Assembly (NCBI GenBank): GCA_945905745.1
Contig: CAMDQF010000015.1
Location: 1 to 40,186, forward strand
DNA: 40,186 nt
Direction: 5' to 3'
Origin: Litorilinea aerophila
GTDB lineage: Bacteria > Chloroflexota > Anaerolineae > Caldilineales > Caldilineaceae
A program made the position numbers and the translations under genes. Shown here in pieces: positions 10,630 through 33,024 of the stretch (positions within the stretch are counted from its first letter, which is position 1; every line of letters begins with the position of its first letter). Below the pieces are notes generated by a model, which saw only the letters and a list, made by a program, of their open reading frames with translations, was not told the origin of the DNA and searched no databases.

Positions 10630-10795
10630 AATTCCTTCCTGGAACTGTAATGGTCAACGACATCATAAAAAGAGATTTGGACGCTGATTCACGCGGATAG
10701 ACGCTGATCCAGAGGAAAAAATCTGCGTTTATCTGCGTTCATCCGCGTCCAAAATTTCACCATCTCGTTGACCACTACAAATTCCTTCCTGGAAC
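10630..10795. mobile_element. TGTA...TACA element E1 (134 bp) with 16-bp target-site-like duplication
   Basis: Direct repeats AATTCCTTCCTGGAAC at 10630-10645 and 10780-10795. Insert 10646-10779 has terminal inverted repeats TGTAATGGTCAACGA / TCGTTGACCACTACA (14/15). Confidence 0.9.
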
Positions 10796-11643
10796 GCTTC
10801 GTTATCGTTGTGTTCCAGGCCAAAGATCGCTTCTTCCAGCGCGAAAATGCCCCGGTAGAAATGGACTCTTTCCAATGCGGTTTCCATCGCCGGGTAGACG
10901 TCGTAGCAGCGACGATAGAAATCTTCGCCGTAGGAGACATACAGCCCGGCGAAATCCGCGGCGGGGTCGCCCAGGCCGGTGAAGCTGAAATCGAGAATGC
11001 CGGTGATGGAGAGCGTTTCTGGGTCGTGCAGCAGATTGCCCGTGCCAAAGTCGCCGTGGCGGAGAGTAGGGGTGTAGGGGTGGCGATCCGCGTTGACAAA
11101 ATAGCGCTCGAAATGGGCGGTCACCCCGGCCTGGGCGTCGGGCCGCATATAGCCGTATAGATTGGCCTGGATGCGTGTGTAGAGGTCGGCCATATCCGCC
11201 GGACTGTCGGCCACAGGCTGGCCGCTGGGGACAATCTGATCGGGTGGGGTGTGGTGGAGTTCCCGCAGAAAGCCCGCCAACTGACCCGCCATCCGCGCCA
11301 GACCGTCGGAATCGTTGATAGCCTGGAACGCTTCCCGCCAGAGGGGTTGGCCGGGGACCAGCGGGTAGCCCATAAAGACTTCGCCCAGGACAGCGCTTTC
11401 TGTGTGGACAAAGGCGGGTTGCGGAATCGGCAATGAAATGTGGGGTTGGAACCGGTGCAGCAGTTCGACTTCCCGGCGCATGGTCTCGATGGCCGGGGCG
11501 ACTTTGGCAAAGCGAAAGATGAAGGCGTCGTTGACGACGAGAACGTCGTTGTACTGGCCGTCGCGGTTAAGGACGGCGGATTCGATGGAGAAATCTGGGT
11601 AGCAGTGATGAATTTGCTGGGTGTAGGAAGTGATTTTGTCCAT
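10729..11643 (-). CDS. Aminoglycoside phosphotransferase (APH)-family kinase
   Basis: 'LRHGDFGTGNLLHDPETLSITGILDFSFTGLGDPAADFAGL' APH catalytic and DFG-like motif. The 3' end lies inside element E1. Confidence 0.88.
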   Translation of the reverse strand: MDKITSYTQQIHHCYPDFSIESAVLNRDGQYNDVLVVNDAFIFRFAKVAPAIETMRREVELLHRFQPHISLPIPQPAFVHTESAVLGEVFMGYPLVPGQPLWREAFQAINDSDGLARMAGQLAGFLRELHHTPPDQIVPSGQPVADSPADMADLYTRIQANLYGYMRPDAQAGVTAHFERYFVNADRHPYTPTLRHGDFGTGNLLHDPETLSITGILDFSFTGLGDPAADFAGLYVSYGEDFYRRCYDVYPAMETALERVHFYRGIFALEEAIFGLEHNDNEAFQEGICSGQRDGEILDADERR

Positions 11644-13319
11644 CAGAAATCCAAAAACTGTGGCCGAAAAACCCACCCCCCATCCCCCCGGAAGCGCAGG
11701 TCGAAGTCATCTTCCCCCGCGCCCAGCACCAGTAAACGGCTGTGACGCTGCACTGGACCGGCGAATTCCACAGCCAGCGGCGCAGTCGTCTCCGCCTTCC
11801 CACTGGGACCGGAGGTGCGGGCCACGTGCAGGGTTTCCCCATCCCAGACCAGTGTGACGCCCCCTTCCCCCACGGGCAAATCCACCAGCGCCCACCAGCC
11901 CCAGTCGTCGGACCAGGCGCGGGCGAGGCGGAGAGACTGGTCGGTCCACTGGGGACTGGGAAGCGGGGACTGGAGACTGGGCAAACGTTCTTCCCAATCC
12001 CCAGTCCCCGCTTCCCAATCTCCAATCACAAACTCCGCCTCCCCTTCCCAGCGGGCTTCGTTTACGCCGTCGTCGCTGTGACGGGCAAGCTGGGCCGCGG
12101 CTTGCAGCGCGGCGGCAAAATCGGCCAGGGCTGCGGGCTGTTCGTCCAACTCCCGGCGGGCGCGGATGAGCACTTCGGCGCAGAGGCGCACAGCCGGGTA
12201 GTGTTCGGCCAGAGAAAAGCCGTGGGGCTGGCGACGCAGATGAGCGGCCAGACTGGTCAGATAGGCCCGGCTGCTGCGAGCCAGGGCGGGGGCGGTATCG
12301 GAACGGCTCTCCACATAAAAGGGCGCAAAGGCCGGGGGCAATTGTCCGTTGCCCTTTTCAGCCAGACGGCGCAGGTGTTCCAGCAGAGAGCGGCTGCGGG
12401 CTGGCTCATACAGGTCGAAGGCTTCCACTAGAGCGGGAACCGATGCCAGCAGCCCATCCGCGGGCGCATCGCCCCCGCGCAGACGGATAAGCTGGCGGGC
12501 CGCGGTCTGTTTGGCCTGATCCGCAGCCCGGTTGAACGCGGGATCCGGCGTCCATAGGCGGCCCCGTTGGGTGATGCGCTGCCAGACGTTCTGGGTCAGG
12601 TTGAAGGCCCGATCGATGTCCCGCTGGGCCAAAAAGCCGTTCCAGGCCATCTGCTCGCCCACTTCGCTGACCGTCAGAATCAGCGGCAGATCCACCTGAC
12701 CCGCCACCAGCACGTGATAGAGCAGGTGGGCACGGGATTCGTCGGGGAAGGAGACCCGATCGGGCTGCCCGTCCGCCGCGCCAAAGACCCGGGTACTCTC
12801 GGCGTTCTGCTGTTCGTGGACGCCCCGGGCTTGGCCGGGCAGGCTCTGGGCCACCAACAGGCCGTCCACCATCCGCTGCTCCAACGGCTCGCCCCAGTCG
12901 ATCTCCACGGCGATTTGCAGCAGCCGGTCCCCTTCGGCCTGACATTCCAACTGCCAGAGGACCGAGCGGTCTTCGTTGCTGCCCATCGGCGCATAGGTGC
13001 GTTTGCTGATAATCACCCCTTCCGCGCCGTAGATTGTCTCCTGATAGCCGGGATAAAAACGCGCGGCCAGGGGCAGCACATCCTCCATCGATTCGGCGCT
13101 GATGCCCTGGCTGGTGTAGATGGGCGCGGCAATGGAGAGGGTGATGGAGCGGGCGTAGGGCCGGTTCTGGCGGGAAAAGTCCAGGTCGTGGAGGTCGCTG
13201 TTGCGGTCGCTGAAGTAACGGACATCCGGGTTGGCGCGCAAAAAGCGGGCATCGGGGGCGATGTCGTCGTAGTCGAAGGTCTCTGGACGGTCAAGGATGG
13301 GGCTGGTGCGTTCAGGCAT
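11643..13319 (-). CDS. Uncharacterised protein; glycosidase-like in parts, function not assigned
   Basis: Long continuous ORF starting MPERTSPILDRPETFDYDDIAPDARFLRANPDVRYFSDRNSDLHDLD, 1-nt overlap with the downstream APH gene; no motif I can name confidently. Confidence 0.7.
   Translation of the reverse strand: MPERTSPILDRPETFDYDDIAPDARFLRANPDVRYFSDRNSDLHDLDFSRQNRPYARSITLSIAAPIYTSQGISAESMEDVLPLAARFYPGYQETIYGAEGVIISKRTYAPMGSNEDRSVLWQLECQAEGDRLLQIAVEIDWGEPLEQRMVDGLLVAQSLPGQARGVHEQQNAESTRVFGAADGQPDRVSFPDESRAHLLYHVLVAGQVDLPLILTVSEVGEQMAWNGFLAQRDIDRAFNLTQNVWQRITQRGRLWTPDPAFNRAADQAKQTAARQLIRLRGGDAPADGLLASVPALVEAFDLYEPARSRSLLEHLRRLAEKGNGQLPPAFAPFYVESRSDTAPALARSSRAYLTSLAAHLRRQPHGFSLAEHYPAVRLCAEVLIRARRELDEQPAALADFAAALQAAAQLARHSDDGVNEARWEGEAEFVIGDWEAGTGDWEERLPSLQSPLPSPQWTDQSLRLARAWSDDWGWWALVDLPVGEGGVTLVWDGETLHVARTSGPSGKAETTAPLAVEFAGPVQRHSRLLVLGAGEDDFDLRFRGDGGWVFRPQFLDF
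11954..12020. repeat. GGGGACTGG-type palindromic repeat inside a CDS (28-bp arms, 25/28 paired, 11-nt loop)
   Basis: GACTGGGAAGCGGGGACTGGAGACTGGG (11954-11981) / CCCAATCCCCAGTCCCCGCTTCCCAATC (11993-12020). Confidence 0.93.
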
Positions 13320-27082: not shown

Positions 27083-27340
27083 ACAGAAAAGGGCCGGGCG
27101 ACTGTCGCCCGGCCCTTTTCTGTGTGGGGTGCATTTCACTTTTAGGGAAAACTGACGGTTGTGACGACCGCTCCGGGCTAAAGACCAATGGGCTGTAAGC
27201 CCACAGCTAACAAACAACGCCGGATAAATCCGGCTGGTCATCGGACGATTTTCGGCGATTCAAGCCCCCTTCAGGGGGCGTAGCTCATTAGCCCGGCGTC
27301 TTTAGCGCCGGGCGACAATCGCCCGGCCCTTTTCTGTGTG
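27083..27340. repeat. Multi-hairpin cassette (at least five successive stem-loops) bounded by a 22-bp direct repeat
   Basis: Perfect 19-bp stem ACAGAAAAGGGCCGGGCGA/TCGCCCGGCCCTTTTCTGT at 27083-27123, then further hairpins; TCGCCCGGCCCTTTTCTGTGTG at 27105-27126 and 27319-27340. Confidence 0.85.
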
Positions 27341-30500: not shown

Positions 30501-31571
30501 ATGATTGTTGACGCAGACATCCACCCCACTATCGAGGGGGCAGCGGTATTGGCCCGCCTGCCCGAACCCTGGCGTACCCGTTACGCCAGCGGCAACCGCT
30601 CGTCCGGATCCCTGGGCTGGTGGAACCCCAACGGCGTGAACCGACCCGACGCCGTGGTGGACGGCAAACGCATCGAGGCGGATCCCCACCTGCTGGCCCG
30701 CCACTTTTTCGATCTCTACGGCATCGACTACGGCGTGCTCATCGCCGGCGGCACACTGCATCTGGGTCTTTCGCCCGAAGCCGACTACGCGGCTGCGGTC
30801 ATCTCGGCTGTGAATGCGGTGATGATCGAGGAGTGGCTGCCCGCTGATCCCCGCTTCCGGGTCGCCCTGACCGTCTATCCCAACGACCCGCAACTAGCGG
30901 TAGCCGAAATTCAGCGCTGGGGTGGACATCCGGGTGTGGTGCAGGTGCAGATGCCCAGCGGCGCACGCATCCCCTACGGCCAGCGCTTCTTCCACCCCAT
31001 CTATGCCGCGGCCGCGGACTTTGGCCTGCCCGTCGCCATCCACCCGGGCACAGAAGGGGTGGGCATCTCCGGCCCGCCCGGCGCGGCCGGCTATCCCACC
31101 AGCTATTTCGAATGGCATACGGGCCTGGTGGAATCGTACATTGCCCATCTGGTCAGTCTGGTCAGCGAAGGGGTCTTTGCCAAATTCCCTACGCTGAAAT
31201 TTGTGATGGTAGAGGGGGGCATCTCCTGGCTGCCGCCGATTCTGTGGCGGCTGGACAAGAACTGGAAGGCCCTGCGTATGACGATCCCCTGGGTGGATCG
31301 TCTGCCCAGCCAGATTGTCCAGGAGCATATCCTCCTCACCACCCAGCCGTTAGAAGAGCCGGAGAACCCCAAGCAGTTCCACGCCATTTTGGAGATGTTC
31401 GACGCAGCCAAAATGCTGATCTTCTCCAGCGACTATCCCCACTGGGACGGGGACACGCCCGACTTCGCCGCCCGCCAGTTTCCCGCCCATCTGCGCCAGC
31501 GGGTGATGAGCCAGACCGCGGCGGAACTCTACAAACTGCCCATACCCGAAGCCCAATTTGCTGAAGAATAG
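30501..31571 (+). CDS. Amidohydrolase-2 family metal-dependent hydrolase
   Basis: 'MIVDADIHPTIEG', 'LPVAIHPGTEGVG', 'FPTLKFVMVEGGISWLPPILWRLDKNWKALR', 'LIFSSDYPHWDGDTP'. Confidence 0.92.
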   Translation: MIVDADIHPTIEGAAVLARLPEPWRTRYASGNRSSGSLGWWNPNGVNRPDAVVDGKRIEADPHLLARHFFDLYGIDYGVLIAGGTLHLGLSPEADYAAAVISAVNAVMIEEWLPADPRFRVALTVYPNDPQLAVAEIQRWGGHPGVVQVQMPSGARIPYGQRFFHPIYAAAADFGLPVAIHPGTEGVGISGPPGAAGYPTSYFEWHTGLVESYIAHLVSLVSEGVFAKFPTLKFVMVEGGISWLPPILWRLDKNWKALRMTIPWVDRLPSQIVQEHILLTTQPLEEPENPKQFHAILEMFDAAKMLIFSSDYPHWDGDTPDFAARQFPAHLRQRVMSQTAAELYKLPIPEAQFAEE

Positions 31572-31609
31572 AACGCGGACGACGCGGATTGGGCTGAACC
31601 ACGCGGATA

Positions 31610-31768
31610 GAATCTGCGAAAATCTGTACTGGTCAACGGGATAATCGAATGATTATTTTCAACGCAAAGATGCAAAGCTGCAAAGCTGTTCTCTGCGCCC
31701 TTTACGTCCCTGCGCCTTTGGGTTGAATATCCACCATCTCTCTGAGCAGTACAGAATCTGCGAAAATC
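31610..31768. mobile_element. TGTA...TACA element E2 (129 bp) with 15-bp duplication
   Basis: GAATCTGCGAAAATC at 31610-31624 and 31754-31768; insert 31625-31753 starts TGTACTGGTCAACGGGAT and ends ATCTCTCTGAGCAGTACA. Confidence 0.87.
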
Positions 31769-32049
31769 TCCGTTTTTGTACTAGGCAAGATGATGATGAA
31801 ATGAAAAAAGCACATTTTCGACAAATTTACTCTAGCAGCCTGTCGGAGAGATCGGTTTTTGTCGTCGACTTGTCCCACTGAGGGCGTTATCTCGGCCAAA
31901 TATACCACTTGACGACCCACTTCATCTCCGAAAATAGGCCAAAATAGGGATGGCGGACCTTACTCCAACAGGCTGCTAGACGGCGATACAAAAAATCGTT
32001 ATTTTTTCATTTCATCATCACGCTGATCAATACAGAAAATCTCCGTTTT
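31762..32049. mobile_element. TGTA...TACA element E3 (258 bp including a nested MITE) with 15-bp duplication
   Basis: GAAAATCTCCGTTTT at 31762-31776 and 32035-32049; insert 31777-32034; internal perfect 19-bp IR TGATGATGAAATGAAAAAA (31791-31809 / 32002-32020). Confidence 0.9.
31832..31979. mobile_element. 148-bp MITE-like element nested in E3
   Basis: Terminal inverted repeats CTAGCAGCCTGTCGGAG / CTCCAACAGGCTGCTAG (16/17). Confidence 0.82.
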
Positions 32050-32085
32050 CTGAAATCTGCGTTCTCCAACGGATGAAAGCCCCCT

Positions 32086-33024
32086 ATGCCCGAACGAATT
32101 CTGATCGACACCGACCCCGGCATTGACGACGCCATGGCGATCCTCCTGGCCCTGGCTTCGCCAGAGGTGCAGGTGGAGGGGCTGACGGTTGTCTTTGGCA
32201 ACAGCGGCGATGTAAACCTGCTGGCCCGCAACGCGCTGGCCATTCTGGAACTGGTCGGGCGTGGCGACATTCCCGTGGCAGTTGGCTCGTCGCATCCATT
32301 GGTGCGGGCCTATCACGGACGAGGCAGTATCGTCCACGGCGACAACGGCCTGGGCAATGTCGAGCTACCCCCGCCGACTACTCTGCCCGTCGCCCAGAAT
32401 GCGGCCCACTTTATCATCGACACCTGTCTTGCCAACCCCGGCGAGATCACCCTCGTCACCCTTGGCCCACTGACAAATATCGCCCTGGCCCTGCGCATCC
32501 GCCCGGACCTGCCCCGCTTTGTGCGCCGCCTGGTGATGATGGGCGGGGCGATCAGTGCGCCGGGCAACGTCAGCCCGGTGGCCGAGGCCAACGTCCACAA
32601 CGACCCGGAAGCGGCTCGCCTCGTCTTCAACGCGGGCTGGGAGATCACAATGGCCGGATTGGATGTGACAATGCAGGTGCATATGGACGATGAATATCTG
32701 GGCGGGCTGCGGGATATAGGCAACCAGACCGGTCGCCTTGTCTGGGAGATCACCCGTTTCTATGTCGCCGCTTACCACAGCTTTGGCTATGCGAATATGG
32801 TTGTCCACGACTCCTGCGCGCTGATGGCGATCATCCGCCCGGAATTCTTCACCTCCAAATTCGTCTATGTGGACGTGGAAACCAGCGGCGAACTGACCCG
32901 GGGCCAGACGATTGGGGACTGGCGACGCCAATACAGGCACGAACCCCAAACCCACGTACTGACCGGCGTTGACGACATCGCCTTCAAACAGCTATACTAC
33001 GAGCGCATTGCGACACTGCCATAG
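32086..33024 (+). CDS. Inosine/uridine-preferring nucleoside hydrolase
   Basis: 'ILIDTDPGIDDAMAILLALASPEVQVEGLTVVFGN' N-terminal metal-binding DxDxxxDD signature. Confidence 0.95.
   Translation: MPERILIDTDPGIDDAMAILLALASPEVQVEGLTVVFGNSGDVNLLARNALAILELVGRGDIPVAVGSSHPLVRAYHGRGSIVHGDNGLGNVELPPPTTLPVAQNAAHFIIDTCLANPGEITLVTLGPLTNIALALRIRPDLPRFVRRLVMMGGAISAPGNVSPVAEANVHNDPEAARLVFNAGWEITMAGLDVTMQVHMDDEYLGGLRDIGNQTGRLVWEITRFYVAAYHSFGYANMVVHDSCALMAIIRPEFFTSKFVYVDVETSGELTRGQTIGDWRRQYRHEPQTHVLTGVDDIAFKQLYYERIATLP

What the first reader, a model, noticed from the sequence alone, without database searches (positions are those of the whole stretch)
31610..32049. Elements E2 and E3: two more TGTA...TACA elements inserted in overlapping sites
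Seen directly. E2 (31625-31753) is flanked by GAATCTGCGAAAATC twice; E3 (31777-32034) is flanked by GAAAATCTCCGTTTT twice. The right E2 duplicate and the left E3 duplicate overlap by 7 bp (GAAAATC). Ends of E1, E2 and E3 align to a consensus near TGTANTGGTCAACGAGATGATGAAAT, with different cores. Excision of both leaves a continuous GAATCTGCGAAAATCTCCGTTTTCTGAAATCTGCG sequence, so the insertion order can be reconstructed. Three copies in 40 kb suggest an abundant non-autonomous family.
Basis: seen in the sequence. Interest (0 to 1): 0.88.

Follow-up and report, generated by a model that had tools for sequence, protein, structure and literature searches.

The report
Small hitchhiking transposons beside each other
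Two short DNA parasites without genes of their own sit side by side in a Chloroflexota bacterium's genome, each flanked by a duplicated 15-base target; they belong to a genus-wide family whose likely motor is an unusual IS481-like transposase, so this is a well-supported new variant of a known kind of mobile element.

Summary
E2 (31625-31753) and E3 (31777-32034) are real, at the stated coordinates, each with an exact 15-bp flanking duplication. A same-genus genome (G001) holds the orthologous intergenic region without either element and with one copy of the target, so two separate insertions are shown. They belong to a large set of MITE-like elements: about 129 end matches in the window's own genome (0 in the reversed control), 51 paired copies in 0.92 Mb examined, at least 14 core types sharing only about 26 bp of TGTAnTGRTCA... 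ends. TSD length, not used in selection, is 15 bp in 34, 16 in 2, 13 in 1, undetectable in 14. The likely autonomous partner lies in assembly gaps of the same genome: at least 8 contigs stop inside it, its ends match E3's (up to 23/26), and two contig pairs share a 15-bp duplication. Intact relatives (1.49-1.64 kb, 15-16 bp TSD) encode a DDE transposase nearest IS481 but below that family's cut-off, usually split over two frames at a poly-A run, with a roughly 150-aa helical insert after the first catalytic Asp.

The parts
31610..31624 (.). left target duplication of E2, GAATCTGCGAAAATC
31625..31753. E2: 129-bp MITE, TGTACTGGTCAACGGGAT...CAGTACA; core made of GCAAAG/GCAGAG-type inverted repeat (cluster 1)
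31754..31768 (.). right target duplication of E2; last 7 bases overlap the left duplication of E3
31762..31776 (.). left target duplication of E3, GAAAATCTCCGTTTT
31777..32034 (.). E3: 258-bp MITE (113 bp in the sister copy on C182) interrupted by a nested element; ends up to 23 of 26 identical to the ends of the own-genome IS
31832..31979 (.). nested element inside E3: CTAG + 140 bp (31836-31975) with its own terminal inverted repeat CAGCCTGTCGGAG + CTAG; a different family, other copies on C103 and in G005
32035..32049 (.). right target duplication of E3
10646..10779 (.). E1: 134-bp MITE of the same set, core of ACGC[AGT]GAT-type inverted repeat; flanked by AATTCCTTCCTGGAAC twice (16 bp)
30501..31571 (+). 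upstream open reading frame (356 aa, amidohydrolase-like by inspection); E2 begins 53 bp after its stop
   Evidence: flank conserved in G001
32086..33024 (+). downstream open reading frame (312 aa, nucleoside-hydrolase-like by inspection); E3 ends 51 bp before its start
   Evidence: flank conserved in G001
27217..27281 (.). uninterrupted paralogue of the site that a related MITE occupies on contig C183 (L176, 9561-9695): single TCATCGGACGATTTT in the same flanks

Best explanation
[quoted passage not shown] The transposase recognises about 26 bp of TGTAnTGRTCA... at each end and joins both ends to the two target strands 15 bp apart; gap repair leaves a 15-bp duplication (staggered joining is inferred from TSD length and established DDE chemistry). 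Because only the terminal 26 bp are recognised, very different palindromic cores can be carried. Targets are AT-rich, near-palindromic (GAAWT...AWTTC) stretches, here an intergenic repeat between two genes. Shown: boundaries, duplications, empty site, copy number, shared ends, partner IS fragments with the same TSD length in the same genome. Inferred: that this IS mobilised E2 and E3, and translational or transcriptional slippage to make the full transposase.
For: Exact boundaries and 15-bp TSDs; empty orthologous site in G001 with one target copy; same-genome uninterrupted paralogue for a related insertion; 129 ends in G000, 134 in G001, 182 in G002, 93 in G006, none for the reversed pattern; 51 pairs, TSD 15 bp in 34, 16 in 2, measured without using TSD for selection; symmetric AT-rich target preference in 45 TSDs, 33% GC; own-genome IS ends at contig ends coding transposase N- and C-termini, with shared 15-bp duplications across gaps C209|C199 GAAAACCGTAGATTT and C268|C417 AAATGGCAGAAATTC; E3 right end 23/26 and left end 20-21/26 identical to IS ends; intact IS relatives with TGTA...TACA and 15-16 bp TSDs encoding rve/rve_3 plus HTH proteins.
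Against: No full-length IS is assembled in the own genome; its middle is missing. G001, G002 and G006 carry many MITE ends without any detectable partner. E1 and E2 ends match the present IS less well (15-20/26) than E3 does, so they may have been moved by other, lost IS lineages. 14 of 51 pairs show no duplication, as expected for old or rearranged copies but not proof.
Confidence: 0.9

Rival explanations
1. E2 and E3 are cassettes inserted by a site-specific (tyrosine or serine) recombinase, and the flanking repeats are attachment-site halves.
For: Exact 15-bp direct repeats flank each element.
Against: Each copy has a different flanking repeat; the empty site carries one copy of that local sequence; terminal inverted repeats match a DDE-type IS.
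Confidence: 0.02
2. The elements are moved by a Cas1-type casposase, which also makes 14-15 bp duplications (from general knowledge).
For: TSD length only.
Against: The elements with such ends and the same TSD length encode an rve/DDE protein, not Cas1. No search for Cas1 in the genome was made.
Confidence: 0.02
3. The MITEs are moved by a different, now lost, DDE family (for instance of the IS1202 long-TSD group), and the IS481-like IS only shares convergent TGTA ends.
For: IS1202 members also have TGT...ACA, 24-26 bp TIRs and long TSDs (PMC10132070, PMC10045372); sister genomes have MITEs but no recognisable partner; E1/E2 ends are less like the IS.
Against: Up to 23/26 end identity to E3 plus identical TSD length for an IS present in at least 8 copies in the same genome; TGTA sites on the + strand of the window outside the elements reach no more than 16/26.
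Confidence: 0.12
4. They are REP/hairpin repeats of structural or terminator function, not mobile.
For: Strongly palindromic RNAs (E1 -59/-67, E3 -81/-98 kcal/mol) between genes; one core motif also occurs outside MITEs.
Against: Clean empty site and perfect target duplications show insertion. A secondary regulatory effect is not excluded.
Confidence: 0.03

Closest known systems
IS481 family (NCBIfam NF033577), especially archaeal members with 15-bp TSD (ISMac4, ISA0963-1; PMC10045372)
   Same: HTH plus rve-type DDE transposase, TG...CA ends, best profile match of all families (139.6 bits, 152.6 after the helical insert is left out); 15-bp TSD known in some members
   Different: Score below the curated cut-off of 224; two overlapping reading frames at a poly-A run in most copies; a roughly 150-aa insert after the first Asp; most IS481 make 6-bp TSDs
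IS1202 family, long-TSD group (PMC10132070)
   Same: TGT...ACA, TIR of about 24-26 bp, 16-28 bp TSD, about 1.4-1.7 kb
   Different: Transposase relation not testable here beyond weak ISNCY hits of the N-terminal frame (22-26 bits); members described have one transposase frame
IS481EU / Banshee and their non-autonomous families in parabasalids (PMC10045372)
   Same: IS481-like transposase, TGT...ACA, 15-16 bp TSDs, non-autonomous relatives
   Different: Eukaryotic hosts; discrete mixture of 4, 15 and 25 bp TSDs, whereas here 15-16 only
IS3 family
   Same: OrfA/OrfB arrangement with an A-rich frameshift, related rve domain
   Different: TSD of 3-5 bp; profile score 101.5 below cut-off 160
Prokaryotic MITEs (review PMC10969869)
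   Same: Short, non-coding, palindromic, TIR plus TSD, AT-rich targets
   Different: No Chloroflexota or IS481-derived set with 15-bp TSD found in the papers searched

Membership tests
MITE | short (<500 bp), no transposase gene | tested here: met
   111-258 bp for 50 of 51 copies, one of 434; no plausible gene in E2/E3
MITE | terminal inverted repeats and target duplications in many copies | tested here: met
MITE | ends shared with an autonomous element in the same genome | tested here: met
   E3 up to 23/26 to IS ends; IS seen only as fragments at contig ends
MITE | mobilised in trans by that transposase | not testable with these tools
   needs an assay
IS481 family (for the partner IS) | transposase reaches NF033577 cut-off (224 bits) | tested here: not met
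   139.6 bits (L070), 135.2 (L071); 152.6 with the insert left out
IS481 family (for the partner IS) | rve-type DDE domain with D, D, E in order and N-terminal HTH | tested here: met
   PF00665, PF13683, PF13518/PF13565; NVDLC...ISDRG...NGIAERF
IS481 family (for the partner IS) | single transposase reading frame | tested here: inconclusive
   two frames at A6-A9 runs in L068, L069, L078, L084, L086; single frame in L070 and L071
IS1202 family, long-TSD group | TGT...ACA ends, about 24-26 bp TIR, TSD 15-28 bp | tested here: met
IS1202 family, long-TSD group | transposase clusters with IS1202 transposases | not tested
IS3 family | TSD of 3-5 bp | tested here: not met
   15-16 bp
Casposon | encodes Cas1-family integrase | tested here: not met
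   full-length relatives with such ends encode a DDE transposase

The most novel reading that the evidence does not exclude
The partner IS represents an undescribed IS family in which a long helical hairpin (about 100 residues with high model confidence, inside a roughly 150-residue insert) between the first catalytic Asp strand and the next strand of the RNase H fold sets the distance of 15 bp between the two joining sites, and which has spread modular hairpin repeats through a whole genus of Chloroflexota by recognising only 26-bp ends.
Probability: 0.2. Interest if true: 0.72.

Novelty: new variant of a known kind. Interest (0 to 1): 0.5.

Why it matters
Why some relatives of IS481 and IS1202 duplicate 15 bp (about one helical turn more than the usual 4-6 bp) is an open question raised in PMC10045372. 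Here is a bacterial lineage with dozens of clean 15-bp insertions, a sister genome with an empty site, and a transposase with an insert at an unusual place: removing or swapping that insert would test the link directly. It also shows that part of the dispersed hairpin repeats of these genomes (GCAAAG-type almost wholly, ACGCGGAT-type in part) travels as MITE cores.

Tried and rejected
Search of the own genome with PF00665 gave nothing, explained by the missing middle of the IS. Rfam: no match in the window. PDB sequence search: only weak retroviral integrase matches. Two AlphaFold2 models have poor catalytic domains (pTM 0.31, 0.35), so no fold search was made; only the helical hairpin is confident, and charged helices are easily predicted with high confidence. 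Of the distant matches in Proteobacteria (L108-L147), those looked at are IS3/IS2-type proteins without the insert and were set aside. Window repeats at 27090-27340 that also passed the TGT...ACA filter are duplicated terminator-like hairpins, not MITEs. Preference of MITEs for ACGCGGAT repeat sites: 4 of 51 against 0.8% of random points, suggestive but small. Insertion order of E2 and E3 rejected as undecidable.

Full report
Observation. E2 and E3 are present exactly as described. E2 is 129 bp with 15-bp duplications GAATCTGCGAAAATC; E3 is 258 bp with GAAAATCTCCGTTTT; the inner duplications share GAAAATC. In the 40-kb window only E1, E2 and E3 combine TGT...ACA ends with a perfect 15-16 bp flanking repeat.

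Empty site. The same-genus genome G001 carries the same two flanking genes (84-88% identical) with an intergenic region that aligns to the sequence predicted by taking out both elements and one copy of each duplication, with no gap larger than 2 bp in the target stretch. This shows insertion, not loss, unless G001 excised both elements precisely. A second case lies in the window itself: 27217-27281 is an uninterrupted paralogue of the site occupied by a related element on contig C183.

Family in the genome. Searches with end patterns give 39, 105 and 129 matches in the own genome according to pattern, with 0 for the reversed pattern. In 0.92 Mb of fetched sequence (chosen around matches, so not a random sample), 159 ends score above threshold against 2 in reversed sequence; 51 convergent pairs result, most of 111-150 bp. 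Their flanking repeats were measured afterwards: 15 bp in 34, 16 in 2, 13 in 1, none in 14. Some of the end sequences behind the scoring matrix came from copies first found with their duplication, so the measure is not wholly independent, but most of the 51 were not among them. Sequence clustering gives at least 14 core types under one end consensus TGTAnTGRTCARnnnGATGnTGrAA. Most cores are imperfect palindromes built from ACGC[AGT]GAT units or GCAAAG/GCAGAG units. The second motif is almost confined to the elements; the first also occurs in many intergenic places outside them and surrounds the E2/E3 target. Target sites are AT-rich (33% GC over 45 TSDs) with a symmetric preference for G-A-A/T-T at the left and A-A/T-T-C/T at the right edge.

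Partner. At least eight contigs begin or end inside the right end of one longer element, coding ...RPQSNGIAERFVRTLKEWLKDKPWPDD...NDRPHQGLPIPGLSPNEFANRLWLF, and three contigs end in its left end, two of which run far enough to code MDKKRTYFPPTTAQQRRLLFEVWEETGDR. Left-end and right-end contigs share duplications across the gap: C209 and C199 GAAAACCGTAGATTT, C268 and C417 AAATGGCAGAAATTC. Its ends match E3 at up to 23 of 26 positions. Intact relatives were found: L068 (1492 bp, TSD 16), L086 (1515 bp, TSD 16, Anaerolineales MAG), L070 (1636 bp, TSD 15). Related loci are mainly in Chloroflexota MAGs.

Transposase. The proteins carry HTH and rve/rve_3 domains. NCBIfam places them nearest IS481, then IS3, both below the curated cut-offs. 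In L068, L078 and L086 the second frame is -1 relative to the first, in L069 and L084 +1, always with an A6-A9 run at the overlap; slippage there is an inference, and homopolymer errors in some MAGs cannot be ruled out. L070 and L071 have one continuous frame. Between the first Asp (NVDLC/NIDLC) and the next strand (AILVI.DN.TR) lies an insert of about 150-180 residues with a conserved PGxVFxDxxLxYxEAM stretch and a charged helical hairpin; leaving the insert out turns two separate IS481 profile matches into one covering positions 2-282 of 284. AlphaFold2 gives the hairpin with high confidence (L070 240-316 and 326-372; L086 frame 104-152 and 157-201), the catalytic core poorly. In transposases with known helical insertion domains, as in ISCth4, the insert sits later in the fold, between a late strand and the next helix of the catalytic domain (PMC7780238); the position here is different by motif order.

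Distribution. G000, G001, G002 and G006 have 93-182 ends, other genus members 10-17, and outside the genus nearly none except G017 and G083. A profile of the transposase finds it in G000, G019 and G083 but not in G001-G006 or G017, so the other genus members hold MITEs without a visible motor in their assemblies.

Nested element. E3 equals the 113-bp sister copy on C182 plus an insert of 140 bp (31836-31975) and a second CTAG; its ends CAGCCTGTCGGAG/CTCCAACAGGCTG are inverted and it is bounded by CTAG on both sides, where C182 has a single CTGG. Copies of the same kind are on C103 and in G005, also bounded by CTAG. It is a separate family.

Verdict. A well-supported set of MITEs with 15-bp target duplications and an IS481-like partner with unusual features. 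15-bp duplications are already known for some IS481 and IS1202 members (PMC10045372, PMC10132070), so this is a new variant of a known kind, not a new category. The papers searched held no description of such elements in Chloroflexota; ISfinder itself could not be searched.

Noticed in passing
window 10646-10779 with ORF 10729-11676 (-): E1 supplies the last 16 codons and the stop of a phosphotransferase-like reading frame, so the insertion probably changed that protein's C-terminus.
   Followed up: partly
window 31832-31979: A 140-bp element with its own inverted ends and CTAG on both sides is nested in E3; similar copies on contig C103 and in G005.
   Followed up: partly
window 31572-31624 and 32050-32065; many places in the genus: Abundant intergenic ACGC[AGT]GAT hairpin-like repeat, more than tenfold above a reversed control, of unknown nature; the same motif forms the cores of E1-type MITEs.
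   Followed up: partly
L201 4433-4866 (contig C11): A MITE of 434 bp that looks like a 135-bp copy interrupted by another insert of about 300 bp.
   Followed up: no
window 27090-27126 and 27304-27340: Two nearly identical strong hairpins followed by TTTT (duplicated terminator-like sequence) enclose a repeat unit of about 200 bp.
   Followed up: no
L177 3011-3288 (contig C187): Two MITEs of different core types lie only 7 bp apart, another side-by-side pair like E2 and E3.
   Followed up: no
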